Below are positions 942 to 45,605 of a stretch of DNA of 64,000 nt, piece after piece. Position 1 is the stretch's first letter. The number at the start of each line of letters is the position of its first letter. The position numbers and the translations under genes were made by a program. The notes beneath the pieces are model-generated. The model ran no database searches and was not told where the DNA came from. It saw only the letters and a list, made by a program, of their open reading frames with translations. This stretch comes from Macrolepiota albuminosa (Eukaryota; Basidiomycota; Agaricomycetes; Agaricales; Agaricaceae): contig JAMWFC010000113.1 in assembly GCA_027475525.1 (NCBI GenBank), positions 744,001-808,000 on the forward strand, given 5' to 3'.

Positions 942-2822
942 ATGTCGCGTACGCCAACGCATTCCCCGACGCCCCCGCAAACGAACGAGGTCGCGCCCCT
1001 CATGGCGTGGGAAGCCCGGGACGCGCGTTACCGGGCTCGACTTGACCGGGAGCGCGTGGCGGTGCTCGCCGAGCAACGTGAGTACTCCCGCGCCGCCTCT
1101 TTACCCCACTGACCTTTCCTTTTCAGAACAACGCAACATTCCGACCCCGGAGGCGGGTCCCAGCCGACTCCCGGAATCTGCTCCCGGGGCGGGTTCCAGT
1201 CGTCCTGCGCCGACCTTCGCGCGTATGACTGTTCGTCCTCCCCGTCCGCAGCCCCCTCCCCGTCCTAGATTGCCTGCCCCCCGCTTTCGTCGTTCCGGGA
1301 TGGAGATAGGGACCGTGTCGGAGGTCCCGGAGAGTCGACGTGTCGCGTGGGCGGACGCGACGCAGGATCTGTTTGTGGAGGCCCTGGAGAGGCTCCGAGG
1401 TCTGCCTACCCACGCCTGGTGCGTGAACAACGGACCGGTGAGTCGTTGCCCTACCTCTGATCTCTCTTGCTGACTCCGGTGTAGTGCTTGCACTGTGCTC
1501 GCCGAGGCGTACTTTGCGAGTTCAAAGTCCCGGGCCCCTCGTCCCGCCGGGACACGGCCGTGTGTGAGGCTTGCCGCCTCAACCACAAACGTTGTTCCGT
1601 GTCGGCGCTGTGGAGGGCGCGCTGTGTCGCCCAGGAGCAGGGATGGCCGTTGGGGGAGGTTACCCGGAGGATGGGGGTAGAGGAGCGGGACTGGGTGGCG
1701 GAGCCTGTGGGGGAGAGGGATGGCCGTTGGGGGAGGTTACCCGGAGGATGGGGGTAGAGGAGCGGGACTGGGTGGCGGAGCCTGTGGGGGAGGTGGTGGA
1801 GCCGGCAGGGGGGGTGCCCACAGCGCCCGCGGAGGCGTCCAGCGGGGGGTCGGGGGATCGGGGGGTCGGGGCCGGCCCGTGGTGCTGATTACGCGCCGGG
1901 CTCCTCGGTCCGGTACCCGGGGGAGGGGGGGCGCCTGGACAAGGGGAAGCGGCGGGCGTCGCCCAGTCCCTCCCCGGGCCCCTCCAAGAGGGCGCACCTG
2001 CCCATGCAGACCCCGTCCCTGGCCTCCCCATCGCGCGTTTCCCCAGCGGTGTTCTCCCCGCTGTCCGGGCGTCCCTTGAGCGCCGAGGTGAGGGAGCTGC
2101 AGGCGCGTTTGGAGCAGGCGGGCCGGGAGAGGGAGGAACGCGAGGAGGGGGCGAGGGAGGAGGCGGCGCTCCGGCGGAGGTTGGAGGAGGATCGCGAGGC
2201 GGCCCTCCGGGAGTTGGGGGAGGCGAGGGTGGCACGGGGGGAGGCCGAGGCCCGGCTGGACGCCATGGGGGCCAGGCTGGGGCAGGGGGTTGGGCTCCCT
2301 GGGCAGGGATCCCCGGGGTTGGTCGAGGTCCTGCGCCGGGATGTGGTGATCGGGCGGATGGCCTCTCTTAGTGAGTGTTCCTCTTCTCGGGGTCGGGTCG
2401 GTACTGACATTCCTAGGTTGGGCTCGGGAGCATCGCCAGCTCCTGGACGGAGTGGCCGCGGCGCTCGCCTCCCTGCAAGAGGGGCTCCAATCGGAGGCGG
2501 GGAACCCCGGGGTGGAGCGGGGTCTGGATCTGTTGGGGAGGCTGGTGACCGCGCACCGCCGGAGGAACGTCCCGGCCCCGGGATCGTGGTTCGAGCGGGT
2601 TCTGGACGAGGGGGAGCCACTCCCACCGCGCACCGCCGGAGGAACGTCCCGGCCCCGGGATCGTGGTTCGAGCGGGTTCTGGACGAGGGGGAGCCACTCC
2701 CTTCCTGGGACCAATTGGCCGAGGAGATGTGGCGAGGACACGGTCCGGAGGGGTTGGGGGAGGAGTTCCGGGGCTGGCCGAGGGGAGGGGAGGGTGAGGG
2801 TAGTTCGGGGCCCCAGCTCTAG
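942..2822 (+). CDS. Opposite-strand Zn-cluster/coiled-coil protein of element A
   Basis: A spliced gene running against gag-pol inside element A. Proposed exons are 942-1077, 1127-1437, 1485-2370 and 2417-2822, with introns of 46-49 bp, all GT-AG; about 528 aa after collapsing the 77-bp duplications at 1640 and 2548. The N-terminus is Pro/Arg-rich. Exon 3 opens with a six-cysteine cluster of pattern CX2CX6CX15CX2CX6C, whose second half (CEACRLNHKRC) is basic like fungal Zn2Cys6 clusters. A Glu/Arg-rich heptad region (about 2080-2280) follows, probably a coiled coil, then a conserved C-terminal domain. Two small frame changes in G-runs near 1860-1930 are absent from the A' copy, so they may be errors. 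DNA or RNA binding is inferred from the cluster only; the function is unknown to me. Confidence 0.72.
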
Positions 2823-3080
2823 GGGCCCCCGTTTTCTTGTTGCTGTCCCGTAGCTGTAGTATAGTGTACTATATATAGAAAATGTATATACTTTGGCTGT
2901 CCCGGGTCAGTAGGAGTAAGGGGCGAAAGAAGCCGAAAGAAACCGGAAAGAACATTTTGCCCAGACGCCGGGACATCACTATGAAATGGTACTAAAAGAG
3001 AGTAAGATCTAGAAAGGAGAAGCAGAAAATATACATGGGAGTTGAATCCCTACTGAACCCAGAGGCGGGGGTTACGCCCA
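2823..3080. other. Non-coding spacer between convergent genes of element A
   Basis: Lies between the stop of the opposite-strand gene and the stop of pol, which converge here. It holds an AT-rich stretch (about 2855-2895) and A/G-rich sequence near 2915-2955. It would have to contain the 3' ends of the opposite-strand transcript. I see no further gene. Confidence 0.6.
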
Positions 3081-6000
3081 CTACTGCCGTCTGTGAGTCC
3101 TGCGCCCGGGAAGATCGTTCCCCGGGTGCCGTTGTTGGAAGTTCCGGAGTTTGTCGAGGGCGCCCGTCTGTGAGCCCTGCGCCCGGGAAGATCGTTCCCG
3201 GGTGCCGTTGTTGGAAGTTCCGGAGTTTGTCGAGGGCGCCTTCGAGGTTTCGGCACGGTTCCCAAGTGTCGTCTTCCGGGCCGTATCCCTTCCATCGTAC
3301 GAGGAAGTGGGGTCGTCCACGAATGTTCCGGGAGTCGAGGATGTCTTCAACCTCGTAGTGGTATTCGTCCTCGACCTCGACCGGGGGAGGGGGCTCGGGG
3401 CGTCGTTCGGGGAAGGGATCCGGGGGGTGTCGTTCCAGGAGGCGTCCTCGACCTCGACCGGGGGAGGGGGCTCGGGGCGTCGTTCGGGGAAGGGATCCGG
3501 GGGGTGTCGTTCCAGGAGGCACGTGGAATACCGGGTGCAGACCTTTTAGTCCCGGGGGAGCTCGATCTTGTAGGCGTGGGATGAGACCTTCTTCAATATT
3601 TTGAACGGGCCGAGACGCTTGTGATCGAGTTTTGGGGAGGGCCGGCGGGTGCGGAGGTGTCGTCGATCTAACCATACCTTTGTCCGCCGAGACGCTTGTG
3701 ATCGAGTTTTGGGGAGGGCCGGCGGGTGCGGAGGTGTCGTCGATCTAACCATACCTTTGTCCGGGGGCCCAGTCGGGGGTGTCTTCCCGTTTCCGGTCGG
3801 CGTGTTTCACGTAGGCCCGGTTCGCGGTGTCGATCTCTTCCCGGCCCAGTCGGGGGTGTCTTCCCGTTTCCGGTCGGCGTGTTTCACGTAGGCCCGGTTC
3901 GCGGTGTCGATCTCTTCCCGAGAAACTCGTGAAGGGATTGGAGATCCCGGGCGACCTTGTGGGCGGCGTGCGACGGGATGTCCCGGAGCGAGAGCGTCAG
4001 TCGAGGGTGGTATCCCTTGTTGGCAAAGAAGGGCGATACCCCGGTGGCAGAGTGCGGCGTGTTGTTGTAAGCGTCAGTCGAGGGTGGTATCCCTTGTTGG
4101 CAAAGAAGGGCGATACCCCGGTGGCAGAGTGCGGCGTGTTGTTGTAGTGAACTCGGCCAGGGGGAGCTCGGCGCGCCAGTCGTCCTGCAAGTAGTTGACG
4201 TACAGCCGGAGGTACTGCTCAAGGGACTGGTTGACCCTTTCGGTTTGTCCGTCGGTTTCGGGGTGGTAGGCGGTAGAGAGGTTAGTCTTTACTTCAAGTG
4301 CCTTACACAGGGAAGTCCAAAACTTGGACACGAAGAGGGGGCCCCGGTCGGAGACGATGTCGTCCGGGAGACCATGCTTGGCGAAGACGTGCTCGAGGAA
4401 CAGCCGGGCGAAGTCCGGGGCGGTATCCGTGGTGTGGCAGGGTAGGAAGATGCCCTGTTTGGTTAGCCTGCACACAACGACGAGAATGGCATCGAACCCT
4501 TCAGATTCCGGGAGCTCGACGATGTGGTCCAGAGATATTGAGGACCAGGGGCGTCGTCCGACCGGCAGGGGTTTCAGGAGTCCGTATGGTCGGTGTCGGG
4601 GGACCTTGGCCCGGAGGCAGGGCTCGCATGATCGAATGTAACGGGTCACGTCCTTCTTCAACCCTGGCCAAAAGTAAGTCCGGGAGATGAGCTGGAGGGT
4701 CTTACGTATTCCAGGATGTCCCCGGAGCTTGTGGTCGTGGTGTTGACGGAGGACGTCGTAGCGAAGTCGGGCGTGATCCGGGACGTAGATGCGGCCGTCC
4801 CGGAGGAGGAGTTTTTCGTCGGGGGACAGGGAGAAGGCGGGGTCCCGGTCGGTTCCATCAGGGGGGTTGCGGGGGTCGTGATCGGTGAAGTACTTGTCTC
4901 GGGACAGGAGAAGGCGGGGTCCCGGTCGGTTCCATCAGGGGGGTTGCGGGGGTCGTGATCGGTGAAGTACTTGTCTCGGGGGGCACGGCGAATCTGACTC
5001 AGGGTCCCTTCCTTGTTTAAGATCAGTACGGCATTCAGATGTTCGGGAGGGATCACCACGCGATGATTGAACGCATTGCGTTCCGCCTCGAATGACTTCT
5101 TGGGGTAGACGTCCGGTCGACGGGTGAGGGCATCGGGTTTGGCGCCAAGTCGTCCCGGGCGGTACTGGATCGTGAAGTCGTATTCCGAGAGGATCTCGGA
5201 CCATCGGGCCTGTCGTCGACTGAGTTGCTTGGTCGTGGTGAAGTACTGCAGGTTATTATGATCCGAGTAGACCTGGATCCGGTGCCGGGCTCCCGACTGA
5301 GTTGCTTGGTCGTGGTGAAGTACTGCAGGTTATTATGATCCGAGTAGACCTGGATCCGGTGCCGGGCTCCTCGAGGTAGGCCCGCCATTGCTTGAAGGCT
5401 TCGACGATGGCGAGGAGTTCCTTGTCGTAAATGTCGTAGTTGAGCTCGGCGTCGATCATGGACCGGGTGTAGAAAGCGACTGGCCGGGGCTCCCCACCGT
5501 CAGGCTCCATCTGTGAGAGGATCCCGGCGATGGCGTAGTCGGACGCGTCACATTCCAGGATGATCGGGAGGGCCGGGTCGTAGTGCCGGAGTACCGGGGC
5601 GACTGTGAAAGCCTCCTTGAGCAAGTTAAAGACGCTCTGGCACTTACTGTCCCAGTTCCAGGCGATGTCCTTACGCGTGAGCCGGTTGAGGGGTTTCGTG
5701 ATCCCGGAGTGCTCTGGCACTTACTGTCCCAGTTCCAGGCGATGTCCTTACGCGTGAGCCGGTTGAGGGGTTTCGTGATCCCGGAGTAGTTGTTATAAAC
5801 CTCCGGTAGAAGTTAGCGAAACCCAGGAAGGACTGTACTTCCTTGACGTTCCGGGGCTGCGGCCAGTTGACGATGGCCTCGACCTTGTGGGGGTCCATGC
5901 GAACGCCATTCGGGGATACTATGACGCCAAGATACTCAACCTCTTCCGTATGGAATGAACACTTCTCGGGCTTGGCGTGGAGGTTGTGCTCCCGGAGGCG

Positions 6001-8465
6001 TTCGAGGACTTGCCGGACATGCTTCTGGTGATCCTCCGGTGAGTCGGAATAAATGAGGATGTCGTCCAGGTAGACGATCACGAAGACGTCGCTCATGTCG
6101 TGGAAGATGTCGTTCATGAAGTATTGGAACGTGGCGGGGGAGTTAGTCATTCCGAAAGGCATTACAAGGTACTCAAACAGACCATACCGCGTGCGGAACG
6201 CGGTTTTCCACTCGTGTCCCGGGGCGATGCGGACGTTGTTGTAACCGGAGCGGAGGTCGATTTTTGTATAAACCTTGGCACTGCGGAGTCGATCGACCAG
6301 ATCGCCAATGAGCGGGAGCGGGTAGCGGTTCTTCTTGGTGATCTTATTGAGTCCCCGGTAGTCGACACAGAGTCGGAGCGAGCCGTCCTTCTTCTTGGCG
6401 AATAGAACCGGGGCTCCGGCGGCGGAGGCGGAGGGTCGGATGAATCCCTTACCGAGCATTTCGTCGAGGTAGTCCTTGAGAGCCCGGAGTTCGACCTCCG
6501 ACATGTTGTAGACCTTGCCGAAAGGGGGGGTAGCATTTCGTCGAGGTAGTCCTTGAGAGCCCGGAGTTCGACCTCCGACATGTTGTAGACCTTGCCGAAA
6601 GGGGGGGGGCTCCTTCCTCGAGGTCGATGGTGTGATCATAGGGGCGGTGAGGGGGGATCTCCTTGGCGTCTCCTTCGGAGAATACGTCAGCGAACTCGTG
6701 ATACTCCGGGGGAACTACTTCTCGGAGGATTTGCTCCTCGGTTTTCTGTTCCGGGGGAATACGTCAGCGAACTCGTGATACTCCGGGGGAACTACTTCTC
6801 GGAGGATTTGCTCCTCGGTTTTCTGTTCCGGGGATGGCGTCCCCTCGTAGGTGTTCTTCCGGGAGAGAAGGCGAGGTGTGCAGCTGAAACGTGGGAGTCC
6901 CATCCCTCATGAGGCGGGCGAAGGGGGCGGCCCCAATGATCCTAATGTCGAGTGCGCTCGGGTCGATCGGTGTTGCGGAATCATCGGCCGGAGCGGGTGT
7001 GACGCGTGTCTGAGACCGGCAGGGGTAGTTCGGCCCTTTGTACTTGTTCCGAGGAATGTTTGGGGGTCGATCGGGGGCCTTGCGGTCTCGGATGGGCGGG
7101 GGTGGTGCATGCGTGGGGGCTTGTTCCGAGGAATGTTTGGGGGTCGATCGGGGGCCTTGCGGTCTCGGATGGGCGGGGGTGGTGCATGCGTGGGGGCGCG
7201 GCAGTCGTCCGGGGTGTCGGGCGTCGGGTCGCTTCCTAGGGCCCGGAGGTGCACGGCGGTCGAGGGGTGGTCTTCGGGTCCCGGGAAGGTCATGGTGAGC
7301 GTCCTCCAATCGATGTCGGGGTTCGTGTCGCGCAGCCAGGGCAGTCCCAGCACCATCGGGGTCGATTCGTGAAGTCGCGTGACCAGGAAGTCGGAAGTGA
7401 ACTCGTAGTTGTTGTCCAGGGTCACGCGTCCCGAGTGAGACCTTTGGATGGGGCCGGAGGAGGAGGGGGTGCCGTCGAGGCGTTGCAGGCGTCCAGGGTC
7501 ACGCGTCCCGAGTGAGACCTTTGGATGGGGCCGGAGGAGGAGGGGGTGCCGTCGAGGCGTTGCAGGCGGAGGGCTGGTCGAGGGAGTCGTGGGGGAGGTC
7601 GAGAGCGTCGCTGATGAAAACCCCGGTGGCTCCGCTGTCGATAAGGGCCGATATCGGTCCTGGGGTGCCGTCCAGCCTGGCATTGATGACGAAGGATCGG
7701 GACGAGCGGGATTGGAGTCCGGGGGGTGGTGAGGGCTCGTCCGGGGGGTCCTTCCTGGCATTGATGACGAAGGATCGGGACGAGCGGGATGGAGTCCGGG
7801 GGTGGTGAGGGCTCGTCCGGGGGGTCCTTCGGGGTTGGATTTGAGGAGTGGGGGATGTCGAAGGGGAGTTGCTGGTCGTCGGGGGTCGGGTCCCGGGTCA
7901 GGCGAAGGGTGAGGTGTCGCCAATCGATGCGGGGGTTAGTGTCCCGGAGCCACGGGAGTCCTAAGACCAGGGGTGCGGAAGGGTGGAGTTTTGTTATCAA
8001 CATCCGGAGGTTGTGAGTCTGTCCGTTGGCGAAGGTAACGGGCATACGCACGAAGTGGGTGATGTCCCCCGCCGTAGAGGCGTCTCCGTCAAAGAGGCAG
8101 AGTCGTACCGGGACCGGGAGTCGCTGGGCGGGTTCCGGGGCGAAGGTAGACCATGCTTCATCGATGAAGTTGTCGGTGGCGCCACTGTCGACGAGGGTGT
8201 TGAGGGGAGTTCCGGAGGGGGTGAGGCGGGTTTTGAGGAGGAGGGAGTGCGAAGAGTGGGAGGGTAGATAAGCCGTGAGGGTGTCCTGTATGAGTGTCGT
8301 AGAGCGAAGATGTGAGACCGGGGCGGAGAAGACGTCGGGGTCGATTCCGCGATTTAGGGCGTCTTCCGGGTCTAAATCGCCGGGTCGTTTTCCGAATACT
8401 CGTAGGTGGCGTCCTCCCCTTCGAAGGTCCAGGTGGCACGTCCCATGACCTGTCGTTTGGGGCAC
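3081..8465 (-). CDS. pol: Pol polyprotein of element A (PR-PR-RT-RH-IN-chromodomain)
   Basis: Replication and integration polyprotein. In sense order: first retropepsin with DSGAT (Asp at 8187-8189) and a distal LGLPWL motif; second retropepsin with DSGAT (Asp at 7637-7639) and its own LGLPWL; RT with catalytic YLDD at 6061-6072; RNase H (about 5720-5260); integrase with catalytic Asp at 4527-4529, Asp at 4347-4349 and Glu at 4239-4241, a D-x35-E spacing; and a chromodomain (about 3240-3420) with [17 protein letters not shown]. Pol overlaps the end of gag in the -1 frame. Many 77-bp duplications break the raw frame. Separately, about 1 nt is missing near 5797 compared with A', between RT and RNase H. 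The chromodomain places it among chromoviruses, which target chromatin. Confidence 0.9.
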
Positions 8466-11504: not shown

Positions 11505-12525
11505 TGTCAGGTTCCGCTGAATCGGGGGCTTTCCGGGAAAGCGACGCCCTTACGATGCGGACTTGATCTACGGATACTCGGGTGTCTGGAACTCCGGGGC
11601 TAGGACTCCGGGGTTCAAGACGAGGACAGGGGTAATCCCGGGAGAGGGGACTAGAGTCCGGGGGTTTTGGATGAGAGTGGCTGGGAGTTAGAGGGGGTCG
11701 AGTCGTGAACCGGAGGTTCTAAGACGAGACCAAGTTAGTAATTTTGGATGAGAGTGGCTGGGAGTTAGAGGGGGTCGAGTCGTGAACCGGAGGTTCTAAG
11801 ACGAGACCAAGTTAGTAATTAAGAGTCGCGAAGTGCGTACCAAGCTTAGAGCACGCGAATACTAAGGCGTGCCAGTCGAAGCGTACCAAACAAGGCGTAC
11901 CAGTCAAGCATGCGTACCAAGCTTAGAGCACGCGAATACTAAGGCGTGCCAGTCGAAGCGTACCAAACAAGGCGTACCAGTCAAGCAAGGGCACGCAATA
12001 TCCAAAGTAACAGTTATGCAATCTCAAGACTACCGAATACAACAGGGAGCTACGCTATAAGTACTACGGGGCCGGGTCTTGGGGTTCCGGGATGTCTGGG
12101 ATGGGTTCCGGGGGTCATTGAGTAGCGGCAGCTATAAGTACTACGGGGCCGGGTCTCGGGGTTCCGGGATGTCTGGGATGGGTTCCGGGGGTCATTGAGT
12201 AGCGGCAGGGGCTATATACCGGGATCGCGCGTGTGGGGCGCGCGATCAATTGGCGCGGATGGGGCCGTGATGCGTGATGCGCGATGTCCGGAGCGAGTCG
12301 CGTGATCCGATCGTTGATCGGGGCTGGGGGCGGCTGATGGCGGTTGATGCGTGATGCGCGATGTCCGGAGCGAGTCGCGTGATCCGATCGTTGATCGGGG
12401 CTGGGGGCGGCTGATGGCGGTGTCAGCGGTCGTGATGGCGGGGCGTGCCTGTGGGTCGGAGGGAGGGTCCCGGAGGGTGTTCCGGGGGTGTCCCGGGGTG
12501 GGCCCGGAGGGGAGGGGTCGTGACA
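11505..12525 (-). repeat. 5' LTR of element A
   Basis: Ends are TGTCAGGTTCC on the plus strand at 11505 and CGTGACA at 12525, i.e. TG...CA in sense orientation. The raw length is 1021 bp. Four 77-bp duplications (11665, 11834, 12054, 12268) reduce it to 713 bp, close to the 735 and 743 bp of the other LTR-A copies. Confidence 0.92.
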
Positions 12526-15940: not shown

Positions 15941-15943
15941 ATA

Positions 15944-22470: not shown

Positions 22471-22667
22471 GCGCCCCCTGCTCGTGCTAGTTCTCCCAAA
22501 CGTACCATGCGTTCCTTCCCTATCTTCCTTACTTCATTTTTCTGACTTCTCCCCTTCCAGATCAATCTCCCTGCTCGTGTTCCCCCTTTGTATGTCATAA
22601 GTGCTTTGCTCATTGTCGCTAGACTTTAGCGCCTAAATGTTAATGTCGATAGGCGCCTAACCAGACC

Positions 22668-24827: not shown

Positions 24828-25358
24828 ATGGCCACCCTGTCTGGTTGCGTGTGGACTCAGAGCTGTGATCGCGCCTATATCACCATGGACCCTCCCACCT
24901 TTCTGGACCGGGCCACCTCGTTTTTTCATCATTACCCTCCCGAGGGTATTCCTAAGTTGGCCGACGAAGTAGTGGAGTTGAGTCGTCGCTGTCAGCTTCT
25001 GCAGGCTGCTTGTGAAATTTGGGGAGACGCATCCCCGTTAACGCGTTTTAGTATGGAGGCCACTTGGAGTCAAGCTTTCCATGTGCGTGTCTTGCTATTC
25101 TTGGCGCACTACAGTGCCCTTCTGACAGTCGCCCAAATCCAGAAAATCGCCATCAAAGACACGGCGGATCATCTTCAACTTTTGATGGAGGAAAGCTATT
25201 ACCTGGTTAGTGACTGAGCCATCACCTCTCCTTCTTCCATGTCTAACGGCCCTTTTCTCCTAGTCCCCTCGCAAGTATACCGGCGCTCGTCTTTTTTGTG
25301 GTCCCCTCGAGGGGCCGACGGTTGTTAGCAAGCGTATTTCTTGGTTCAGCCCTTCTTG
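24828..25358 (+). CDS. Opposite-strand gene B3 of element B (unknown, about 157 aa)
   Basis: Exon 1 is 24828-25205 (126 codons) and ends at a GTTAGT donor; a 58-bp intron ends with TAG at 25263; exon 2 runs to a stop near 25358. The protein is mainly helical by composition (FLDRATSFFHHYPPEG, FHVRVLLFLAHYSALL). I do not recognise it. An inner Met at 24885 is an alternative start. Exon 2 could instead splice into B4, which would make B3 and B4 one gene. Confidence 0.5.
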
Positions 25359-25574: not shown

Positions 25575-25613
25575 TCTGAGATTTCCGGGCCTAGCGTTGT
25601 TAAGTTCTTCAAA

Positions 25614-26478
25614 ATGCCTACTCCCTTTTTCCTTCTCAAAGACATCACCTCTGTTCCTCGTCCCAAGGTTTTAGATCGCCTCGAGATGTTCTTTGCTTGA
25701 CTGCCCCCAGGCGGTATTTGACACCAGAACGGGAACATCCTCACCCTGATTCATCATTACAGGTTACTTCTGGCTATGACCCAGGAGTGGCTCGTAGAGT
25801 CCGAACGTCACCCCAACACGGTAAGTTTCTACAGGCAGCGTGATTCAGTACCTTCTTACGCGTCCCTTCAGCCTCCTATTTTGGGTAGCCAAAAGTGCTT
25901 GGAGTTCCTACTCCTCGAAATGGATAATATTGTTAGTCCCTCCCCTTTTCCTTTCATACCTTCAGGGTTGCTGACCCCTTGCTTCAGACTTTGAAGTGGT
26001 TGCCCTTGCCGGATCTGATTGACGACGACGTTTGTGCCGCCACGCTCGAGCGTGTCATCATTCCCTTCACTCCTCTAGCTCCTCGCTTTGGAGCTGGAGC
26101 GCCTCCTGCCCCCATAAATGAGTCTCCACCCGGCTCCTCCACCTTACTCCTCTAGCTCCTCGCTTTGGAGCTGGAGCGCCTCCTGCCCCCATAAATGAGT
26201 CTCCACCCGGCTCCTCCACCTTTTGCTTTGGAGCTGGAGCGCCGCCTGCTCCCATAAATGAGTCTCCCACCGGCTCCTCCACCATTTGCGCTGGAGCGCC
26301 ACCTGCTCCCGTAAATGAATCTCCTCCCGGCTTCTCCACTTTTCCTCCGGGGACCTTTCCCTTTACTCCGTCGCCTATTCTCCCCCCTGCACCGCCTCCT
26401 TTTCCTGCGCAACTCCGCCGCAGACAGCATCCTAGGCATTCTGAGGGATTTGTTAGGGGTCCTCACCGTAGAACTTAA
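25614..26478 (+). CDS. Opposite-strand gene B4 of element B with proline-rich repeats
   Basis: Starts MPTPFFLLKDIT. Several short exons are suggested by GT-AG pairs (donors near 25820 and 25935, acceptors near 25872 and 25966); I cannot fix every border. The C-terminal part carries imperfect tandem repeats of about 19 residues (GAGAPPAPINESPPGSST and variants) and ends HRRT-stop at 26478. One of the repeats is a 77-bp duplication (26069); the other copies are diverged and real. Function unknown. It may be the 3' part of B3. Confidence 0.45.
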
Positions 26479-29600: not shown

Positions 29601-31231
29601 GTGTTTGAAACGTCGTCAAATCGCAAGAGGCAGGATGGATTAAGCGCTCATCATAGCCAACGTACAAATCCAGGGTAGCGCCACATATTCGTCCCGCAAA
29701 AGATTCAGCAACGTGATCGGGAAATGGCGGTACCCCTGAATGACGAATGGTGACTTTGTTTAGCGGTTCTAAGCTGTGAACTATACGTAGCTTCCCGTTT
29801 TTCTTCAGTATGCAGAACCATCTCAAGCGGTAGGCCAAATTAGAAGGCTCGTATACACCTGCTGCTATCTTAGAGCGAATAATTTGGCAGACTTCGGCTT
29901 CGATGCCCGGGGGTATGGGTCGGTTATGCTCAGTCCAGGGGCTATCTTAGAGCGAATAATTTGGCAGACTTCGGCTTCGATGCCCGGGGGTATGGGTCGG
30001 TTATGCTCAGTCCAGGGTACGTGCGGTATTGTCAGTATAACCACTGGTGGAAAGAAGTCAGTTCTAAGTTTACCGCGCTCTGAGTCCTCCCATGCGAAAG
30101 CCTCATTCTGCTTTTGCATGACGTTGACTAATACGTCCATTTCCTCCGTCGAGAGAAAGCCAGTATCGTGGGCGCTAAGAAATAGCGCCTTTTGTTCTTC
30201 TGTAAATCGTCCTGTTGGTTCAAAGGGTGGTGGATTTGGGTCGAGTTTTGGCAGGGTAGCCAACGGGTTGCCTATTATTTTTCTTTCAATGCGGAATTCC
30301 TCGGGTACGGCGCTCGCTACCGGTTTTGTTTTAAGCGCTACGGGTTTATATTTCTTCTTGACTTGAACCCCTTTGCGCTTAGGGGTACTATTGTTAGCAA
30401 ACGTATTATAAATAGAGTCATGGTTTCTAGCGAAACCTGATATCAAAGATTCTTTAGAGTCGGGAGTAGAAACGAAATAAGTGTCTGTTGAAAGGTTTTC
30501 AGTAATATCTGACGCAGTGAGGTATAAGTAGGATAACGCTTTGCTAGTAAGCGACGAGGAAGAATTCAAGATTTCATGGGCTAAAGGGGTATGTGATATA
30601 AAGTTTACTTGCCCAGTCCGATGGTTATAGTCCAAGATAAGCGCTTCATCTCCATGATCCTCATCACTCATCTCCTCAATGGCGCCGGAAAACACTCGCA
30701 AGGGTTGTCGCTAATGTAAGGTCGCTTTCTTGGTCCCAGCTTCTGGAATTTCCCCCGAGGGAACGTTGGTACCGTTCTCCTGATGCCCGAGTTAGGGTCG
30801 CTAATAGTTAGCGTCGTTTCGTCTTCAGACGTTGTCTTGACTACTGATCGGGCTAAGACGTCGAAGGGCCTCCCTAATAATAAGTTGTACGCAGGCGATC
30901 TAAGAATGTGTATTTGAAGGTAAAACGTAAGATCGCCAACAGCGCATGGCACGTTACGAGCCATTCCCAAGGATCGATCAATAGTGCTGTTAGCGCTTTG
31001 CATATTAAGAATGATGGTCGGGTCGTAAATGATGCCAAGCTCGTTAGCGACGTCGGCAGCCATTGAAATAATCTGTGATCCGCTGTTCACGATAGACTCT
31101 ATCTCACTTTTTCCATCAACTGTCAACATAATCGAGCAAATTGCATGAGAGTCTTGGGCTACAGTGAGGACGGCAGGATTGTCACTAGATCTTAGCGACT
31201 TAAGGTAGGTTTTGACTAGGTCAATGGACAT
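26683..31231 (-). CDS. pol: Pol polyprotein of element B (PR-RT-RH-IN)
   Basis: Starts at an ATG overlapping the gag stop in the +1 frame. The protease reads NSGSQ (about 31070) where DSGSQ is expected, so the catalytic Asp is Asn. RT has GATLDLYVGYDE and the active site FIDD near 29480. RNase H (VILAVDTSYIAIGFFLCQ) is near 28980. The integrase has an HHCC zinc region (HDDLGH ... CHLCQ, about 28000-27850), then VTDNGAP and IVERPY for the second and third catalytic residues. Pol ends in an acidic tail at 26683. Breaks come from 77-bp duplications (26784, 27778, 28679, 29864) plus a probable true frameshift near 30690, where frames change without a duplication. Probably inactive. Confidence 0.85.
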
Positions 31232-33312: not shown

Positions 33313-34432
33313 TGATGATGCCAACTGTGGTTGGGTGCGCTGGACGTATACACAGTACAACGCCGTCTCCAGCGCCTGGCGTACGGGTTTGTGAGGAGTC
33401 CCAGCAGGGTCCCGGTGTGCTCGAGCAGAGGTGATGGGGTGATGCGCTAGTCGATAGCGCCTCGGGTGCTACCTAGCAAGTGGTAAGCGTCGTAGTTTAG
33501 GAGAAGTTCTAGAGAAATAAACGAATAGCGCAGCGTAGCGTGCCCGTAGGTGGCACCGTAAACAACGAAGACGAGATAGACAAAGCTAGCGCCAAACTTG
33601 GTGACAAAGTCAGGCAACGCTAGTGCGATTTGAACGCTAAGTGTAACTGGGTGCTCAAGAGGTTACGATTCGTTGTTATATACATGGCAAGTAGCTAGTT
33701 TTTATACTATGCGCTACATTATTTCCAAAATAAGTCCATTGATGGCGCTACCAATTAGCGCCTCTCTTCGTGACTGTAGCTAACGGCCACCTGTCAACGG
33801 CGACCTGCAGCACATGGGTGACAGCGACCAACGGCGACTCTAAAACTACTTAGAAGTGGTACGAGTTTGCTCACTTTTTGATGTAATTTAATTGGCCATG
33901 CCATCCCGGGGTATGATCGGGGAATCCTCGACAGACGCCGTGAGCGCTAATTCCGGCGCTAAACATTGTACCATCTTTTGATAGATTTAAATGTCAGGTC
34001 TGCGTGTATCCTGTCTCGTCGTCATTGATTCCTTTAGACTTCTGATTGAGGTGCCTCGGTGATTGACAGCGCCAGTTGCTAACTCCTTTCAGTACTGATC
34101 GGGGTTTGGTCAGAGTCACCTCCCGCCATTGTGCTAGCGCTATGAGTTCTGGGCCTTCTTGGTCTTCAAAGTAACTGAGTGGAGGGCGCTGAGGGGCTGA
34201 TACTGGTGATTGAGATGAATGGATAAGTCTTGCCATAGAGCGCCCAAGTAACTGAGTGGAGGGCGCTGAGGGGCTGATACTGGTGATTGAGATGAATGGA
34301 TAAGTCTTGCCATAAAGCGCCCGCGCTAGGGCTGCTCTGTACCCAATGCTGGTCGCTAGAGTCTCTAGTGTGTCAAGTGTTGGTCGGCCTATAATGTCCC
34401 TTGATGCGCTCAGTCCGAGTAGAAGCCTATCA
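33313..34432 (-). repeat. 5' LTR of element B
   Basis: Raw length 1120 bp, 1043 bp after removing the 77-bp duplication at 34170, identical in length to the corrected 3' LTR. It has a TATAAAAA on the sense strand at 33699-33706, a likely promoter. Its outer end abuts the interior of an LTR-A. Confidence 0.92.
33699..33706 (-). promoter_or_regulatory. TATA box of LTR-B
   Basis: Sense-strand TATAAAAA in the middle of the LTR, conserved in the 3' LTR near 20717 and, with changes, in the solo LTR at 42279. Confidence 0.5.
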
Positions 34433-35302: not shown

Positions 35303-35322
35303 CCCTCCTTACACCGTTTTTG

Positions 35323-38050: not shown

Positions 38051-41000
38051 ACCCGGAAGACGTCCTAAATCGCAGAATCGACCCCGACGTCTTCTCCGCC
38101 CCAGTCTCGCATCTTCGCTCTACGACATTCTTACAGGACACCCTCACGGCTTACCTACCCTCCCACTCCTCACACTCCCTCCTCCTCAAAACCCGCCTCA
38201 CCCCTCCAGAACCCCCCTCGACACCCTCGTTGACAGTGGCGCCACCGACAACTTCATCGACGAAGCATGGTCTACCTTTGCCCTGGAACCCGCTCAGCGA
38301 CTCCCAATCCCGGTACGGCTCTGCCTCTTTGACGGAGATGCCTCTACGGCGGGGGACATCACTCATTTCGTGCGTATGCCCGTTACTTTCGCCAACGGAC
38401 AGACTCACATCCTCCAGATGTTGATAACCAAACTCCACCCCTCCACACCCCTGGTCCTAGGGCTCCCGTGGCTCCGAGACACCAACCCCCGCATCGATTG
38501 GCGACATCTTACCCTTCGCCTGACCCCCTGGTCCTAGGGCTCCCGTGGCTCCGAGACACCAACCCCCGCATCGATTGGCGACATCTTACCCTTCGCCTGA
38601 CCCAGGACCCGACGCCTGACGACCAGCAACTCCCCTTCGACATCCTCCACTCTCCAAACCCTAGCCCGAAGGACGGGCCCCCACTACCCCCTGGACTCCA
38701 GTCCCGCTTGTCCCAATCCTTCATCATCAATGCCAGGCTGGACAGCGCTCCGGGACCGATGTCGGCCCTCATTGACAGCGGAGCCACCGGAGTTTTCATC
38801 AGCAACGCCCTCGACCTCCCCCACAACCCCCTCGATCAGCCCTCTGCCTGCAACGCCTCAACGGCACCCCCTCCTCCTCCAGCCCCATCCAGAGGTCTCA
38901 CTCGGGATGCCAATGACTACGAGTTCACCTCCGACTTCCTGGTCACGCGACTTCACGAATCGACCCCGATAGTGCTGGGACTACCCTGGCTGCACGACAC
39001 GAACCCCGACATCGATTGGAGGATGCTCACCATGACCTTCCCGGGACCCGAAGACCACCCCTCGACCGCCATGACACGAACCCCGACATCGATTGGAGGA
39101 TGCTCACCATGACCTTCCCGGGACCCGAAGACCACCCTCGACCGCCATGCACCTCCGGGCCCTAGGAAGCGACCCGACGCCCGACACCCCAGGACGACTG
39201 CCGCGCCCCCATGCATGCCCCACCCACGCCCGTCCAAGACCGCAAGGCCCCTGATCGACCCCCAAACATTCCTCGGAACAAGTATAAAGGGCCAAACTAC
39301 CCTGGCCGGTCTCAGACACGCATCACACCCGTTTTGGCTGATGCATCCGTGACCCCAATCGACCCGAACGCACTCGACATTAGGATCATTGGGGCCGCCC
39401 CCTTTGCCCGCCTCATGAGGAATGGAACTCCCACGTTTCAGCTACACACCTCGCCCTCCCTCCTGGAAGAACATCTATGAGGGGACGCTATTCCCCCGGA
39501 AAAGAAAACCGAGGAGCAAATCCTCCGAGAAGTAGTTCCCCCGAAGAACATCTATGAGGGGACGCTATTCCCCCGGAAAAGAAAACCGAGGAGCAAATCC
39601 TCCGAGAAGTAGTTCCCCCGGATTATCACGAGTTCGCTGACGTATTCTCCAAAGGAGACGCCAAGGAGATCCCCCCTCACCGCCCCTACGACCACACCAT
39701 TGACCTCAAGGAAGGAGCCACCCCCCCATTCAGCAAGGTATACAACATGTCGGAGGTCGAACTCCGGGCCCTCAAGGACTACCTCGATGAAATGCTCGGT
39801 AAGGGATTCATCCGACCCTCCGCCTCCGCCACCGGAGCCCCGGTTCTATTCGCCAAGAAGAAAGACGGCTCACTCCGACTCTGCGTCGACTACCGGGGAC
39901 TCAATAAGATCACCAAGAAGAACCGCTACCCGCTCCCGCTCATTGGCGATCTGGTCGATTGACTCCGCAGTGCCAAGGTTTACACAAAAATTGACCTCTG
40001 CTCTGGTTACAACAACGTCCGCATTGCCCCAGGACATGAGTGGAAAACCGCGTTCCGCACGTGGTATGGTCTGTTTGAGTATCTTGTGATGCCTTTTGGA
40101 ATGACTAACTCCCCTGCCACGTTCCAATACTTCATGAACGACATCTTCCATGACATAAGCGACGTCTTTGTGATTGTCTACCTGGACAACATCCTCATCT
40201 ATTCTGACTCGCAGGAGGACCACCAGAAACATGTCCGGCAAGTCCTCGAACGCCTCCGGGAGCACAACCTCCACGCCAAGCCCAAGAAGTGTTCATTCCA
40301 TATGGAAGAGGTTGAGTATCTTGGCATCGTAGTATCCCCGAATGGCGTTTGCATGGACCCCCACAAGGTCAAGGCCATCGTCAACTGGCCACAGCCCCGG
40401 AACGTCAAGGAAGTACAATCTTTCCTGGGTTTCGCTAACTTCTACCAGAGGTTCATAGATAACTACTCCAGTATCACGAAACCCCTCAACCGGCTCATGC
40501 GCAAGGACGTCGCCTGGAACTGGGACAGTAAGTGCCAGAGTGTCTTTAACCTGCTCAAGGAGGCTTTCACGGCCGCCCCCGTACTCTGGCACTACAACCC
40601 GACCCTCCCAATTATCCTGGAATGCGACGCCTCCGACTACGCCATCGCCGGGATTCTCTCACAGATGGAACCTGATGGCGGGGAGCTCCGGCCAGTTGCC
40701 TTCTACACCCGGTCCATGATCGACGCCGAGCTCAACTACAACATCTACAACAAGGAGCTCCTCGCCATTGTCGAAGCCTTCAAGCAATGGCAAGCCTACC
40801 TCGAGGGAGCCTGGCACCGGATTCAGGTCTACTCGGATCACAACAACCTGCAGTACTTCACCATGACCAAGCAACTTAGTCGACGGCAGGCCCAATGGTC
40901 TGAGGTTCTCTCGGAATACGACTTCACGATCCAGTACCGCCTGGGACGACTCAGAGCTAAACCCAATGCCCTCACCCGTCGACTGGATGTCTATCCCAAG

Positions 41001-43638
41001 AAGTCGTTCGAGGTGGAACTCAATGCGTTCAATCATTGCGTGGTGATCCCTCCCAAACATCTGAATGCTGTACTGATCTTAAACAACAAAGGAACCCTGA
41101 GCCAGATCTGCCGTGCCCCCCAGGACAAGTACTTCACTAACCACGACCCCCGCAACCCCCCCGACGGGACCGACCGGGACCCCGCCTTCTCCTTGTCCCC
41201 TGACAAAAAACTCCTCCTCCAGGACGGCCGCATCTACGTCCTGGATTACACCCGACTCCGCTATGACGTCCTCTGTCAACACCACGACCACAAGCTCCAG
41301 GGACACCCTAGAATACGTAAGACCCTCCAGCTTATCTCCTGGACTTACTTTTGGCCAGGGTTGAAGAAGGACGTGACCCGTTACATTTGATCATGTGAAC
41401 CCTGCCTCCAGGCCAAGGTCCCCTGACACCGACCATACAGACTCCTGAAACCCCTGCCAGTTGGACGATGTCCCTGGTCCTCCATATCCCTGGACCACAT
41501 CGTTGAACTCCCAGAATCTGAAGGGTTTGATGCCATTCTTGTCGTTGTGTGCAGGCTAACCAAACAGGGCATCTTCCTACCCTGCCACACCACGGACACC
41601 GCCCCGGACTTTGCCCGGCTGTTCCTTGAGCACGTCTTTGCCAAACATGGACTCCCAGACGACATCATCTCCGACCGTGGCCCACTTTTTGTGTCCAAGT
41701 TCTGGACTTCCCTGTGTAAGGCCCTTGAAGTAAAAACTAACCTCTCTACCACTTACCACCCCAAAACCGACGGCCAAACTGAAAGGGTCAACCAGTCCCT
41801 TGAGCAGTACCTCCGACTGTACGTCAACTACTTGCAGGACGACTGGCGCGCCAAGCTCCCCCTGGCCAAGTTCACCTACAACAACACACCGCACTCCACC
41901 ACTGGGGTATCGCCCTTCTTTGCCAACAAGGGGTACCACCCTCGACTGACACTCTCGCTTCGGGACATCCCATCACACGCCGCCCATGAGGTCGCCCGGG
42001 ATCTCCAATCCCTTCACGAGTTTCTCCAGGAAGAGATCGATACCGCAATCCAGGCCTATGTGAAACACACCGACCGGAAACGGGAAGACACCCCCGACTG
42101 GTCCCCCAGGACAAAGGTATGGTTAGATTGACGCCACCTCTGCACCCGCCAGCCCTCCCCAAAACTCAATCACAAGCGCCTCGGCCCGTTCAAAATTTTG
42201 AAGAAGGTCTCATCCCACGCCTACAAGATCGAGCTTCCCCCGGGACTAAAAGGTCTGCACCCGGTATTCCACATCCGCTGATGACACCAACTGTGGTTGG
42301 GTGCGCTGGACGTATACGCAGTACAACACCGTCTCCAGCGCTTGGCGTGCGTAGTTGTGAGGAGTCCTGACAGGGTCCCGGTGTGCTCGAGTGGAGGTAG
42401 TAAAACGATGCGCTAGCTTATAGCGCTTCGGGGGCTACCTGGCAGACGGTAAGCGTCGTAGTTTAGGCAAAGATATTGGAGAAAAGACGAATAGCGCAGC
42501 GTATTGTGCCCGTAGGTGGCACCGTAAACGATGAAGACGAGATGGACGAGGCTAGCGCCCGACTTAGTGAAGAAGTCGAAGGAAGCTAGCGCGAGTTGAA
42601 CGCTAAGTGTAACTGTCTGTTCGAGGGGTTACAATTCGTTGTTATATACATGTAAAGTAGCTATTTTATATACTATGCGCTACCGTGTTTGTCCAGATAC
42701 AAGTCCACCTGCGGCGCTACTTCCTAGCGCCTCTCCTCGTGGTTTCCTCTAACGGCGACCTGTCAACGGCAACCTTTTGCACATGGATGACGGCGACCAA
42801 CGGCGTTCTGACCCACGGCGACCAGCGGCGACTCTATATTGGCTTAGAATTGCATGAGTCTGCTCACTTTTATTCTAACTCCAATTGGCCAGGCTGTTTC
42901 GGGGTATGGTCGGAAAATCCTCGACAGACGCCGTGAGCGCTAGTGTCAGCGCTACTCATTGTATTAGTTCCTGACAGGTCCAGATGTCGGATTTAAGTAT
43001 ATCCAGTGCTGCCGTCATTGATCCTTTTAGACTTCTGATTGAAGTGCCTCGTCAAATGGCAGCGCCTGTTGCTGACTCTTTCTGGAAGTGATCGGGGTTT
43101 AGTTAGAGTCCTCTCCCGCCGTCGTGTTAGCGCTATACGTTATGGGCCTCCTTCGTCCTTGGGATAGGTGAATGGAGTGTGCTGAAAGCTGGGTAGCTAG
43201 TGGTTAGGATAAACGTCTAGATCCTGTAGTCAGTTGCCAGAGCTAGAGCTGCTCTATATTCCCAACTGGTCGCTAGAGCCTTTAGTACGTCAAGTGTTGG
43301 TTGGCCTATAATGTCCCTTGATGCGCTCAGTCCGAGTAGAAGCCTATCACCGCCTCCTGAAACGACACCCCCCGGATCCCTTCCCCGAACGACGCCCCAA
43401 GCCCCCTCCCCCGGTCAAGGTCGAGGACAAGTACCACTACAAGGTTGAAGACATCCTCGACTCCCGGGATATCCGTGGACGACCCCACTTTCTCGTACGG
43501 TGGAAGGGATACAGCCCGGAAGATGACACTTGGGAACCGCGCTGAAACCTTGAAGGTGCCCCCGACAAACTCTGGGACTTTCAACAACGGCACCCAGGAA
43601 ACGACCTTCCTGGGCGCAGAACTCACAGACGGCAGTAG
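37957..43638 (+). pseudogene. pol: Pol of element A' (interrupted by a solo LTR)
   Basis: Carries both proteases (catalytic Asp codons at 38232-38234 and 38774-38776; exactly 155 codons apart once the 77-bp duplication at 38448 is removed), RT with YLDN instead of YLDD at 40179-40190, RNase H (about 40480-40960), integrase (about 41390-41900) and chromodomain (about 43410-43550). Nonsense changes include TGA near 39958 and 41388. Solo LTR-B at 42279-43349 splits it before the chromodomain. Ends with TAG at 43636-43638. Confidence 0.88.
42279..43349 (-). repeat. Solo LTR of the B family inside element A'
   Basis: 1071 bp, starting TGATGACACCAACTG and ending AGCCTATCA. The flanks repeat CCGC (42275-42278 and 43350-43353), a 4-bp target duplication; removing LTR plus one repeat restores the A' pol sequence. 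It differs clearly from the LTRs of element B, so it is an older insertion reduced by LTR-LTR recombination. Confidence 0.9.
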
Positions 43639-43898
43639 TGGGCGTAACCCCTGCCTCTGGGCTCAGTAGGGATTCAACTCCCATGTATACTTTCTGCTTT
43701 CACTTTCTAGATCTTACTCCTTTTTTATTTACTTTTCCGCAGTAACGCCCCGGAGTCTGGACAAGGTACTCTCCCCAGTTCCCCCGCCGCCTTACTTACA
43801 CTATCACTTGACTCCAGGACACCGATTATATACATTTTTTTTACGTACACTATGTTACAGTTAGCAGTACCAGGACAACAGCAAGAAAATGGGGGCCC
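43639..43898. other. Non-coding spacer between convergent genes of element A'
   Basis: Equivalent to 2823-3080 of element A: AT-rich sequence between the stop of pol and the stop of the opposite-strand gene. No gene seen. Confidence 0.55.
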
Positions 43899-45605
43899 TT
43901 AGAGCTGGGGCCCCGAACCGCCTTCACTACCCCCTCCCCTCGGCCAGCCCCGGAAATCCTCCCCCACCCCCTCCAGACCGTGCTCCCGCCACACCTCCTC
44001 GGCTAGCTAATCCCAGGACAGGAGCTGCTCGTCCTCGTCCAAAACGCACTCGAACCATGACCCCGGGGCCAGGACGTTCCTCCAGCGGTACGCACCCACC
44101 AGCCTCCCCAGCAAATCCAGACCCCGCTCCACCCCGGGGTTCCCTGCCTCCGACCATAATCCCTCTTGAAGGGACACGAATGCTGCGGAGGCCCCGTCCA
44201 GGAGCAGGCGGTGCTCCTGAGCCCAGCCTGGAAATGTTAGTATGACCCAACCACGAAAAGGGGACACTCACTCAAGGAGGCCATGCGCCCAATCACCACG
44301 TCCCGACGCAAGGCCTCGACTAACTCCAGACTCGGGGGACCTTGCTCCAGGAGCCCCACCCCCTGTTCCAGCCGGGCCCTCATGGCATCCAGCTGGGCCT
44401 CGGCTCCCCCGCGGGCCACCCTCGCCTCCTCCAGTTCCTGAAAGGCGGCCTCGCGTTCCTCCTCCAGCCCCCTCCTCCCTCGCCCCCTCTTCGCGTTCCC
44501 CCCTCTCCCAGTTAGCCTGTTCCAGGTGCCCCTGCAGTGCCCTCACCTTGTCCTCCAACGGTTGCCCGGACAATGGGGAAAAAACCACCGGAGAAAGACG
44601 CGCTGGGGAAGCCAGGGATGGGGTCTCCAAGGGCAGGCGCGCCCTCTTAGAGGGCCCCGGCGAGGGACTGGGCAACGCCCACCTCTTCCCTTTGTCGGGG
44701 CGCCCCCCACGCCCCTCGTGACTGGTGGTCCCGGCCCGGGTCGCCCGACGGGTGATCAGGACCACAGGACGACCCCGGCCCCCCACCCGGACGACCCCTT
44801 GGCCCCTCGACCCCCCACCAGCCCCCGCGGGCACCTTCCCCACCGGCTCCACCACCCAATCCCGCTCCTCGACCCCCATCCTCCAGGTGACTCCCCCCAG
44901 CAGCCAGCCTTGCTCCCAAAAGACACAACGCGCCCTCCACAGCGCTCGTGGTTAAGGCGGCACGCCTCACACATGGACGTGTCCTGGCGGGACGAGAGAC
45001 CCGGGACCTCAAACAGGCAGGGGACCACCCATCGAGCGCAGTGCAGGCACTACGCCAGAGTCAGCAATGGGACCCGAGGTAAGACAGCACTTACCGGTCC
45101 ATTGCCTACGCACCAGGCATGGAGAGGTAAACTCCGGGGCCTCCCCAGACAGCTCCTGCGTTGCGTCCGCCCACGCAATGCGTTGACCCTCCAGGACCTC
45201 GGAGACAGCCCCTACCGCCATCCTGGAATGACAAAAGCGGGGGGCGGGCAGTCTAGGGCGGGGAGGGGGTTGAGGACGGGGAGGGCGGACAGCCATCTGT
45301 GCAAAGGTAGGCGTGGAACAACTCGGGTGGGACTCCGGGAGGGCACTAGGGCCCGCATCGGGAGCAGGCTCCGGGTGCCGACTGGGACCCGCTTCCGGGG
45401 CAGGATTACTGAGTTGTTCTGGATTATGAAGGTCAGCTGAGACAGGCAGATGACGCAGGAAGCACTCACGTTGCCAGACGAGCTCTGCTACACGCTCCCG
45501 GTCAAGGCAGGCTCAGTATCGCGCGTCCCGGGCCTCCCAGGCCATGAGGGGCGCGACCTCGTTAGTGTGTGGGGGCGTCGGGGAATGCATCAGCGTATGC
45601 GACAT
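43899..45605 (-). pseudogene. Opposite-strand Zn-cluster/coiled-coil gene of element A'
   Basis: Homologous over its length to gene 942-2822. It starts MSHTLMHSPTPP at 45605. The cysteine cluster is fully kept as CX2CX6CX15CX2CX6C near 45050-44935 (CLHCARWVVPC ... CEACRLNHERC), again right after a splice acceptor. Between about 44880 and 44500 the frame is continuous where A has two G-run shifts. A TGA replaces an Arg codon (CGA) early in exon 1, and the coiled-coil part has frame changes. Inactive as it stands, but useful for correcting the A model. Confidence 0.7.

What the first reader, a model, noticed from the sequence alone, without database searches (positions are those of the whole stretch)
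942..45605. Spliced opposite-strand genes with six-cysteine clusters as cargo in two unrelated Gypsy lineages
Elements A, A' and B each place a spliced gene on the strand opposite gag-pol, between pol and the 3' LTR (942-2822, 43899-45605 and the block 21746-26478). In A/A' the cluster is CX2CX6CX15CX2CX6C; in B2 it is CX2CX8CX8CX2CX6C. In all three the first cysteine is the first codon after an intron. Introns on the strand opposite the genomic RNA are not spliced out of it, so such a gene can survive retrotransposition intact. Opposite-strand ORFs are known in some plant and oomycete LTR elements; I know of no described system with a zinc-cluster, coiled-coil product shared by two fungal Gypsy lineages. 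It could regulate the element's own transcription, its integration, or host silencing.
Basis: partly seen in the sequence, partly recalled or inferred. Interest (0 to 1): 0.9.

Follow-up and report, generated by a model that had tools for sequence, protein, structure and literature searches.

The report
Antisense spliced genes in fungal retrotransposons
Two kinds of jumping element in a fungal genome each carry extra genes written on the strand opposite their own enzymes, cut by introns and kept under selection in many copies, which suggests the elements encode their own nuclear helper proteins.

Summary
In both Gypsy lineages of the window a spliced gene lies between pol and the 3' LTR on the opposite strand, and the first cysteine of a six-cysteine cluster follows an intron. 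Genome-wide, each cluster has over 800 first-look candidates, 150 of each scored and matching. Where a scored reverse transcriptase has a scored cluster nearby, the gene is opposite and downstream in 66 of 67 (A) and 78 of 81 (B) cases. Some copies elsewhere give uninterrupted spliced proteins (A 15 of 40, B2 28 of 40 loci, a few with artefact-like extra segments). Among those, dN/dS is 0.16-0.17 in A's conserved parts and 0.03 at B2's cluster. The three window copies are all interrupted, A possibly only by an assembly artefact. B carries four opposite-strand genes, not one.

Not supported: that the two products are one family (profile comparison 0.5%), or that either is a Pfam Zn2Cys6 protein. 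[quoted passage not shown] The likeliest function, inferred only, is a nuclear regulator of the element.

The parts
1..737 (-). Element A 3' LTR (starts at or just before the window start; the LTR end and PPT are present twice because of a 77-nt duplication at 694-848)
   Evidence: LTR repeat with 11584-12525 and with A'; TG..CA ends
738..750 (-). Polypurine tract of A beside the 3' LTR (reads GAGGGGGGGGTGA on the minus strand)
   Evidence: same block in the 8 loci aligned
942..1077 (+). A opposite-strand gene, exon 1
   Evidence: conserved in intact copies
1078..1126 (+). A intron 1 (GTGAG..CTGAC..CAG)
1127..1437 (+). A exon 2
1438..1484 (+). A intron 2, ends directly before Cys1
   Evidence: 39 of 40 loci
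1485..2370 (+). A exon 3: CX2CX6CX15CX2CX6C cluster (1485-1595), linker, coil; frame shifted by the exact 77-nt duplication 1639-1792
2371..2416 (+). A intron 3
2417..2822 (+). A exon 4, conserved C-terminal domain; contains the 77-nt duplication 2548-2701
2992..3675 (-). 3' end of A pol with chromodomain; converges on the opposite-strand gene about 170 nt apart
   Evidence: PF00385 E 8.2e-14
5674..6639 (-). A reverse transcriptase frame
   Evidence: PF00078 E 1.1e-43
11584..12525 (-). Element A 5' LTR
43899..45605 (-). A' opposite-strand gene (exons 45605-45470, 45418-45095, 45049-44272, 44227-43899); decayed, stops in exons 1 and 4; cluster cysteines kept
39558..42128 (+). A' pol (RT, RNase H, integrase pieces), broken by stops and frameshifts; a B-type LTR is inserted further on
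20326..21522 (-). Element B 3' LTR (contains 77-nt duplications)
21746..22600 (+). B1, opposite-strand spliced gene (exon 1 21746-22003; later exons and end approximate)
   Evidence: first exon also in L041, L060
22668..24261 (+). B2, opposite-strand spliced gene: exons 22668-22826, 22882-23475, 23529-23874, 23929-24261; cluster CX2CX8CX8CX2CX6C at 22882; window copy loses frame near 23.3 kb
24828..25356 (+). B3, opposite-strand spliced gene (start 24828 or 24885; end approximate)
25614..26478 (+). B4, opposite-strand spliced gene, paralogue of B3; window copy has a stop in exon 1; inner exon ends not worked out
29236..29946 (-). B reverse transcriptase piece, FIDD box, about 22% identical to the A RT
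33313..34432 (-). Element B 5' LTR

Best explanation
The Gypsy lineages A (a chromovirus) and B (FIDD-box RT, no chromodomain found in the part searched) carry conserved accessory genes on the strand opposite gag-pol, between pol and the 3' LTR. A has one, B has four. Shown here: position, strand, high copy number, introns kept across copies, and purifying selection on the opposite-strand frame. Inferred: an antisense promoter in or beside the 3' LTR makes a separate mRNA, whose introns are removed by the spliceosome. The genomic RNA carries those introns only as complement, so they are not spliced there and each new copy inherits an intron-bearing gene. Inferred: the A and B2 proteins enter the nucleus through basic stretches, fold six cysteines around metal in the manner of a zinc cluster, and oligomerise through a C-terminal helical region. 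They act in trans on the element's own DNA, most likely to set the level of sense transcription, as antisense-encoded HBZ does in HTLV-1 (recalled) and as proposed for Grande GENE23 and Retand TRP28. B1, B3 and B4 would be small helical partner proteins.
For: Gene reality: 820 (A) and 828 (B2) first-look candidates genome-wide, 150 of each scored, all 150 matching. Placement: 66 of 67 (A) and 78 of 81 (B) paired scored RT copies have the gene opposite and downstream. Three of 4 A-type RT copies that lacked a scored partner also have the cluster downstream and opposite. Intact spliced ORFs: A 15 of 40, B2 28 of 40 loci, counting one A and four B2 products with odd extra segments. Introns: GT..AG, 44-52 nt in A, branch-like CTRAY in 44 of 45 introns of the 15 intact A loci; intron before Cys1 in 39 of 40 loci of each family. 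Selection: A dN/dS 0.16 (N-terminus), 0.17 (cluster), 0.17 (C-terminus), 0.39 (linker), 0.44 (coil), 0.23 overall; B2 between subfamilies 0.03 at the cluster, 0.08 overall; B3 and B4 exon 1 pN/pS 0.22-0.29 from three B3 and two B4 copies; A-type RT for comparison 0.11. In both families the five other frames of the aligned exons have stops in every row. Chance of the cysteine pattern: 0 in 20 randomisations. Basic stretches: SKRARL in 14 of 15 A, SKRKP in 27 of 28 B2 predictions; that these are nuclear signals is recalled. Analogues: HBZ, GENE23, TRP28.
Against: No RNA or protein data. The cluster is not recognised as Zn2Cys6 at Pfam's cut-off, and none of 59 Zn_clus matches in the genome lies within 2 kb of the 300 scored A and B2 loci. 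Single-sequence structure models are weak (mean pLDDT 67 and 70), and a PDB fold search of the A model gives nothing significant. No binding site, promoter or target was shown. The dN/dS values come only from copies with open frames (7 of 8 distinct A proteins; 10 of 28 B2 predictions), so the gene frame is stop-free there by selection of rows, and the reverse frame that shares third positions also shows a low ratio (0.42 A, 0.19 B2) though it has stops. One of 4 unpaired RT copies showed no gene in its 2-kb stretch (L097).
Confidence: 0.5

Rival explanations
1. The opposite-strand proteins work after transcription: they are accessory factors of the particle or pre-integration complex (nuclear import, target choice, chromatin tethering), not transcription regulators.
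For: Basic stretches and a helical C-terminus suit this too; Vicient and Casacuberta raise nuclear import of the pre-integration complex for such proteins.
Against: A already has a chromodomain on pol, the usual tether of chromoviruses (recalled); a separately promoted antisense gene is an indirect way to make a virion factor.
Confidence: 0.2
2. The proteins counter host silencing (an anti-silencing factor, as VANC proteins do for VANDAL elements; recalled).
For: Runs of identical copies (8 of 40 A loci encode one identical 539-aa protein) suggest recent activity of such elements, although assembly duplicates may add to this; a cysteine cluster with basic stretches would fit.
Against: Nothing here links the gene to chromatin or small RNA; convergent transcription by itself would promote dsRNA silencing.
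Confidence: 0.2
3. The A and B2 genes are descendants of one ancient accessory gene carried by both lineages.
For: Both place a phase-0 intron exactly before the first cysteine; with three introns in about 1430 nt this has roughly a 0.2% chance for B2 given A (my arithmetic). Both end the cluster with CX2CX6C, then a linker with basic stretches, then a helical C-terminus, at the same place in the element.
Against: hhalign probability 0.5%, E 0.13, with shallow profiles (5 and 4 sequences); different spacing (X6/X15 against X8/X8); coincidence or constraint on the intron cannot be excluded.
Confidence: 0.4
4. The frames are by-products: non-coding antisense transcripts with accidental ORFs in GC-rich DNA.
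For: The A gene region is GC-rich, and long mechanical ORFs occur on both strands there.
Against: dN/dS is far below 1 in the gene frame and the other five frames have stops; introns and cysteines are kept.
Confidence: 0.02

Closest known systems
Antisense additional ORFs between pol and 3' LTR (aORF-3R) of plant LTR elements: maize Grande gene23, rice RIRE2, Silene Retand, PvRetro13
   Same: Position, orientation, presence in most copies of a family, conservation comparable to other element proteins, proposed nuclear role (PMC7264820, parts 1 and 2 of 3 read; PMC11963269 passages)
   Different: Plants; no six-cysteine cluster described in what I read; the main text of the Retand paper has 0 occurrences of 'intron' and 'zinc'; here three introns in A and in B2 and, in B, four genes
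Boty / BcGypsy1 antisense gene brtn (Botrytis cinerea)
   Same: Fungal Gypsy element with an antisense gene; title of Zhao et al. 2011 seen in the reference list of PMC8365987 and cited as an example in PMC7264820
   Different: Ascomycete element; the Zhao paper itself was not seen, so its structure, introns and product could not be compared
HTLV-1 HBZ
   Same: Antisense product of a retrovirus with an antisense promoter inside the 3' LTR, nuclear, with a critical role in the life cycle (passage in PMC11963269); that it is spliced and acts on sense transcription is recalled
   Different: bZIP protein (recalled) of an animal retrovirus; no sequence relation tested; analogy of mechanism only
Fungal Zn2Cys6 binuclear cluster proteins (PF00172)
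   Same: Six cysteines in two CX2C-led halves; A spacing CX2CX6C..CX2CX6C
   Different: Below Pfam cut-off for A, no match for B2; loop of 15 in A and X8 in B2 do not fit the usual spacing (recalled); Zn_clus matches in this genome are at other loci

Membership tests
[quoted passage not shown]
   Window anatomy; 66 of 67 and 78 of 81 paired copies opposite and downstream of RT
aORF-3R (antisense ORF between pol and 3' LTR) | Antisense to gag-pol | tested here: met
   67 of 67 (A) and 79 of 81 (B) paired copies on the opposite strand
aORF-3R (antisense ORF between pol and 3' LTR) | Present in most copies of the family | tested here: inconclusive
   Over 800 candidates each, but hit lists are cut at 150, so the fraction of copies with the gene is not known; 3 of 4 unpaired RTs had it
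Zn2Cys6 (PF00172) | Score above Pfam gathering cut-off | tested here: not met
   A: 14.6 bits against 21 for the window copy; best E 0.019, in 2 of 5 members; B2: no Zn_clus match in 4 members, one has a weak zf-FPG_IleRS match at E 0.044
Zn2Cys6 (PF00172) | Six cysteines in CX2CX6CX5-12CX2CX6-8C spacing (recalled) | tested here: not met
   A CX2CX6CX15CX2CX6C; B2 CX2CX8CX8CX2CX6C
Zn2Cys6 (PF00172) | Binds two zinc ions and DNA | not testable with these tools
   Models too weak
One protein family for A and B2 | Significant profile-profile similarity | tested here: not met
   hhalign probability 0.5%
Chromovirus (element A) | Chromodomain at the end of pol | tested here: met
   PF00385 E 8.2e-14
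Chromovirus (element B) | Chromodomain at the end of pol | tested here: inconclusive
   None in window 26922-27632, but this pol is frame-broken, so it was only partly covered
Boty brtn | Sequence relation to brtn | not tested

The most novel reading that the evidence does not exclude
Fungal Gypsy elements evolved a multi-gene antisense regulatory module. It is a spliced cysteine-cluster DNA-binding protein plus, in B, a duplicated set of small helical partners, transcribed from the 3' LTR side and protected through retrotransposition by lying antisense. One ancestral cysteine-cluster gene was passed between, or kept in, distant Gypsy lineages. The elements would thus have a retrovirus-like accessory layer controlling their own expression.
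Probability: 0.25. Interest if true: 0.85.

Novelty: new variant of a known kind. Interest (0 to 1): 0.62.

Why it matters
Antisense genes of LTR elements have been seen for years with no known function. Here they are shown in two distant fungal lineages, with at least 150 scored copies of each cluster in one genome, introns, cysteine clusters and measured selection, and up to four genes in one element. That makes the question testable in culturable fungi. Introns on the opposite strand also mark these genes: a copy that had passed through the antisense mRNA would lack them. In practical annotation, such genes are easily mistaken for host transcription-factor-like or orphan genes.

Tried and rejected
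Searches for relatives outside this genome gave nothing usable. The 5.8-billion protein set had no match for the A or B2 product. This is weak evidence, because the set holds many relatives of the B reverse transcriptase (1038, 120 of them listed) but single unspliced exons fall outside the length range of a spliced query. Viral contigs gave no relative for either cluster or either reverse transcriptase, and bacterial/archaeal contigs none for the B reverse transcriptase; since even the RT is missing, these collections say nothing about distribution.

A stand-alone fold of each cluster was weak, and the PDB search of the A model meaningless; no fold search was run for B2. The idea that one profile would join A and B2 failed. 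PDB sequence searches gave only chance or coil-type hits. Reading A as a canonical Zn2Cys6 factor was rejected. A first pol dN/dS estimate (0.22) included the window copy, whose frame is shifted, and (0.30) included two loci with stops (L001, L004); both were set aside, and with 6 of 8 loci (0.11) is the one used. A conserved CGG-N-CCG-like inverted repeat in the A leader was not taken as evidence, since the region is GC-rich and chance was not excluded. Ten ORFs from the rest of the window gave no Pfam match that explains them. Paper searches in the open PMC library listed no paper on a spliced cysteine-cluster antisense gene in a fungal element; this rests on titles, abstracts and the passages cited, and most subscription papers are not covered.

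Rows dropped: A dN/dS used 7 of 8 distinct proteins (L071 left out, different C-terminal end); B2 dN/dS used 10 of 28 predictions; the 495-aa predictions (L051, L060, L066) and the 516-aa L088, which carry duplicated segments, were not used, nor was L036 (A, accepted, rejected). One A pair with dS of 0.02 or less was dropped from the cluster median.
Full report
What is there. Short introns and the only two organisms named among the 120 listed relatives of the B RT (Grifola frondosa, Galerina marginata) point to an Agaricomycete (inference). Elements A (minus strand, 1-12.5 kb), A' (plus strand, 34.7-46.5 kb) and B (minus strand, 20.3-34.4 kb) have LTRs. A and A' pol are about 90% alike; the A pol ends in a chromodomain. 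The B RT is about 22% identical to the A RT, has FIDD in place of YLDD, and no chromodomain was found in the part searched. So 'two distant Gypsy lineages' holds.

The opposite-strand genes. A gene: ATG at 942, four exons, stop at 2822, pol ending about 170 nt away on the other strand. A' gene: 45605 to 43899 with the same exon plan. B2: 22668-24261, four exons. Besides B2, the B block holds B1, B3 and B4. B3 and B4 are paralogues (35% identity over 51 residues, E 5e-8 in a small pairwise comparison); B1 may be a third member (E 0.001). Their first exons are present in the few other copies examined: B1 in L041 and L060, B3 in L091-L094 and B4 in L091, L093 and L094, with a frame break in L092. 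B3/B4 exon 1 pN/pS is 0.22-0.29 from three B3 and two B4 copies.

More than chance. A loose six-cysteine pattern occurs three times in 64 kb, each time directly after TAG, and never in 20 randomised windows. In fetched loci, 39 of 40 A copies and 39 of 40 B2 copies have a donor within about 60 nt and AG directly before the first cysteine; in the other one of each the cluster start was not found. Intron lengths vary (A intron 2: 45-48 nt) while exons stay in frame, so the full-length frames join only when introns are removed. One exception tells less: in B subfamily b intron 2 happens to be open and in frame.

State of copies. Uninterrupted spliced predictions: A 15 of 40 loci, 8 distinct proteins of 527-577 aa, one of them (539 aa) identical in 8 loci, one (L071) with an odd C-terminus; B2 28 of 40 loci, 24 of them 476-477 aa, and L051, L060, L066 and L088 with extra segments that look like 77-nt artefacts. 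These 80 loci are the best-scoring hits plus 20 more diverged ones chosen by me for long open frames, not a random sample. Window copies are all interrupted: A by two exact 77-nt tandem repeats, A' by stops, B2 by a frameshift.

A technical trap. The window has 46 exact tandem matches of period 77 (42 with a run of at least 74) and, apart from one 31-nt minisatellite, no other period between 20 and 199 at the same threshold. In about 298 kb of fetched loci, some of which lie in the window, there are 99 of period 77; periods 40-51 occur once each, which I attribute to a run of N in one locus. A fixed 77-base overlap is what a k=77 graph assembly leaves when contigs are joined without merging (inference). 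Frames in this genome are therefore often shifted by artefact, and decay of A in the window cannot be judged.

Genome-wide placement. Of 150 scored A-type RT hits (2743 candidates) and 150 scored A clusters (820 candidates), 67 pair within 8 kb: all 67 opposite in strand, 66 with the gene 3.3-5.0 kb downstream, one upstream; 83 are unpaired in each list. For B, 81 RT hits pair within 10 kb: 78 opposite and downstream, three exceptions (one same-strand downstream, one same-strand upstream, one opposite upstream); 69 RT hits unpaired. The cut at 150 probably explains many unpaired rows: 3 of 4 unpaired A RTs examined have the cluster in place, 1 shows none in the 2 kb read.

Selection. A (7 proteins, 21 pairs): dN/dS 0.16 N-terminus and exon 2, 0.17 cluster, 0.39 linker, 0.44 coil, 0.17 C-terminus, 0.23 overall. 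B2 (10 proteins): between subfamilies 0.03 cluster, 0.11 linker, 0.08 C-terminus, 0.08 overall; within subfamilies 0.18. All five other frames have stops in every row; the gene frame has none, but rows were chosen for that. pN/pS is 0.26 (A) and 0.14 (B2) in the gene frame and 1.2-3.5 in four other frames; the reverse frame that shares third positions has 0.42 and 0.19. RT of A: 0.11 (6 of 8 loci). Copies with closed frames were left out, which lowers dN somewhat.

What the proteins look like. A: N-terminal part, cluster, Ser/Pro/Gly-rich linker with KGKRR...SKRARL, variable coil, conserved C-terminal domain. B2: short N-terminus, cluster, long linker with SKRKP and GKRRE, C-terminal helical part. 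SKRARL is in 14 of 15 A and SKRKP in 27 of 28 B2 predictions. Pfam: Zn_clus below cut-off for A, nothing convincing for B2; a weak coil match for A in one of 5 members. A genome search with Zn_clus finds 59 places, none within 2 kb of the scored A or B2 loci. Models are of low confidence. The A-B2 profile comparison is negative. The shared intron position is the best remaining hint of common descent.

How it probably works. The gene must have its own antisense transcript; parts of the leader between LTR and ATG are conserved in the 8 (of 27) leaders aligned. Since the introns are antisense to the genomic RNA, each round of retrotransposition keeps them; this follows from the anatomy and fits the retained introns. 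A nuclear regulator acting on the element is inferred from basic stretches, the cysteine cluster and analogy with HBZ, GENE23 and TRP28.

Known or new. Antisense genes in this position are known in plants (Grande, RIRE2, Retand, PvRetro13) and in Botrytis Boty. In the searched library I found none described as spliced, with a cysteine cluster, or in sets of four. I read two of three parts of PMC7264820, passages of PMC11963269, PMC8365987 and PMC5408684, and search listings for the rest. Hence: a new variant of a known kind.

Noticed in passing
46 places in the window, e.g. 544-698, 694-848, 1639-1792, 2548-2701, 38448-38603: Exact tandem matches of period 77 (42 of 46 with a run of 74 or more), 43 of 46 inside the A, B and A' stretches; also 99 in fetched loci. 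Looks like unmerged k=77 contig overlaps of the assembly; frames of this genome should be read with that in mind.
   Followed up: yes
24828-26478 against 22668-24261: Window B3 is far from the B3 of a copy in the subfamily whose B2 it resembles (pS 0.87 against L091; the B2 cluster exon is up to 93% identical at protein level): the antisense cassette looks mosaic, as if modules recombine between elements.
   Followed up: partly
21746-26478: B3 and B4 are tandem paralogues and B1 possibly a third: a small helical protein family duplicated inside one retroelement.
   Followed up: partly
42279-43349: Solo LTR of the B family inserted in A' near the end of pol, flanked by a 4-bp direct repeat CCGC.
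   Followed up: partly
46545-46620: The 3' LTR of A' is followed by sequence that normally lies just inside the 5' LTR of an A element: a tandem LTR-internal-LTR-internal arrangement.
   Followed up: no
54683-55307 and 15673-15959: Further A-type LTR copies or fragments in the window.
   Followed up: no
47380-47627: Array of a 31-nt minisatellite inside an inverted repeat pair (46624-47918 and 49652-50937).
   Followed up: no
genome, e.g. pairs C36/C115, C92/C92, C81/C81: Zn_clus matches often appear as pairs with identical scores, suggesting that the assembly keeps both haplotypes or duplicated segments; copy counts may be inflated.
   Followed up: no
window 850-873, leader upstream of the A ATG: Block GCGTAGCCGGTGGTTCGGACCGG with inverted CCGGT..ACCGG arms, complete in 6 of 8 aligned loci; a candidate binding or promoter site, chance not excluded.
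   Followed up: partly
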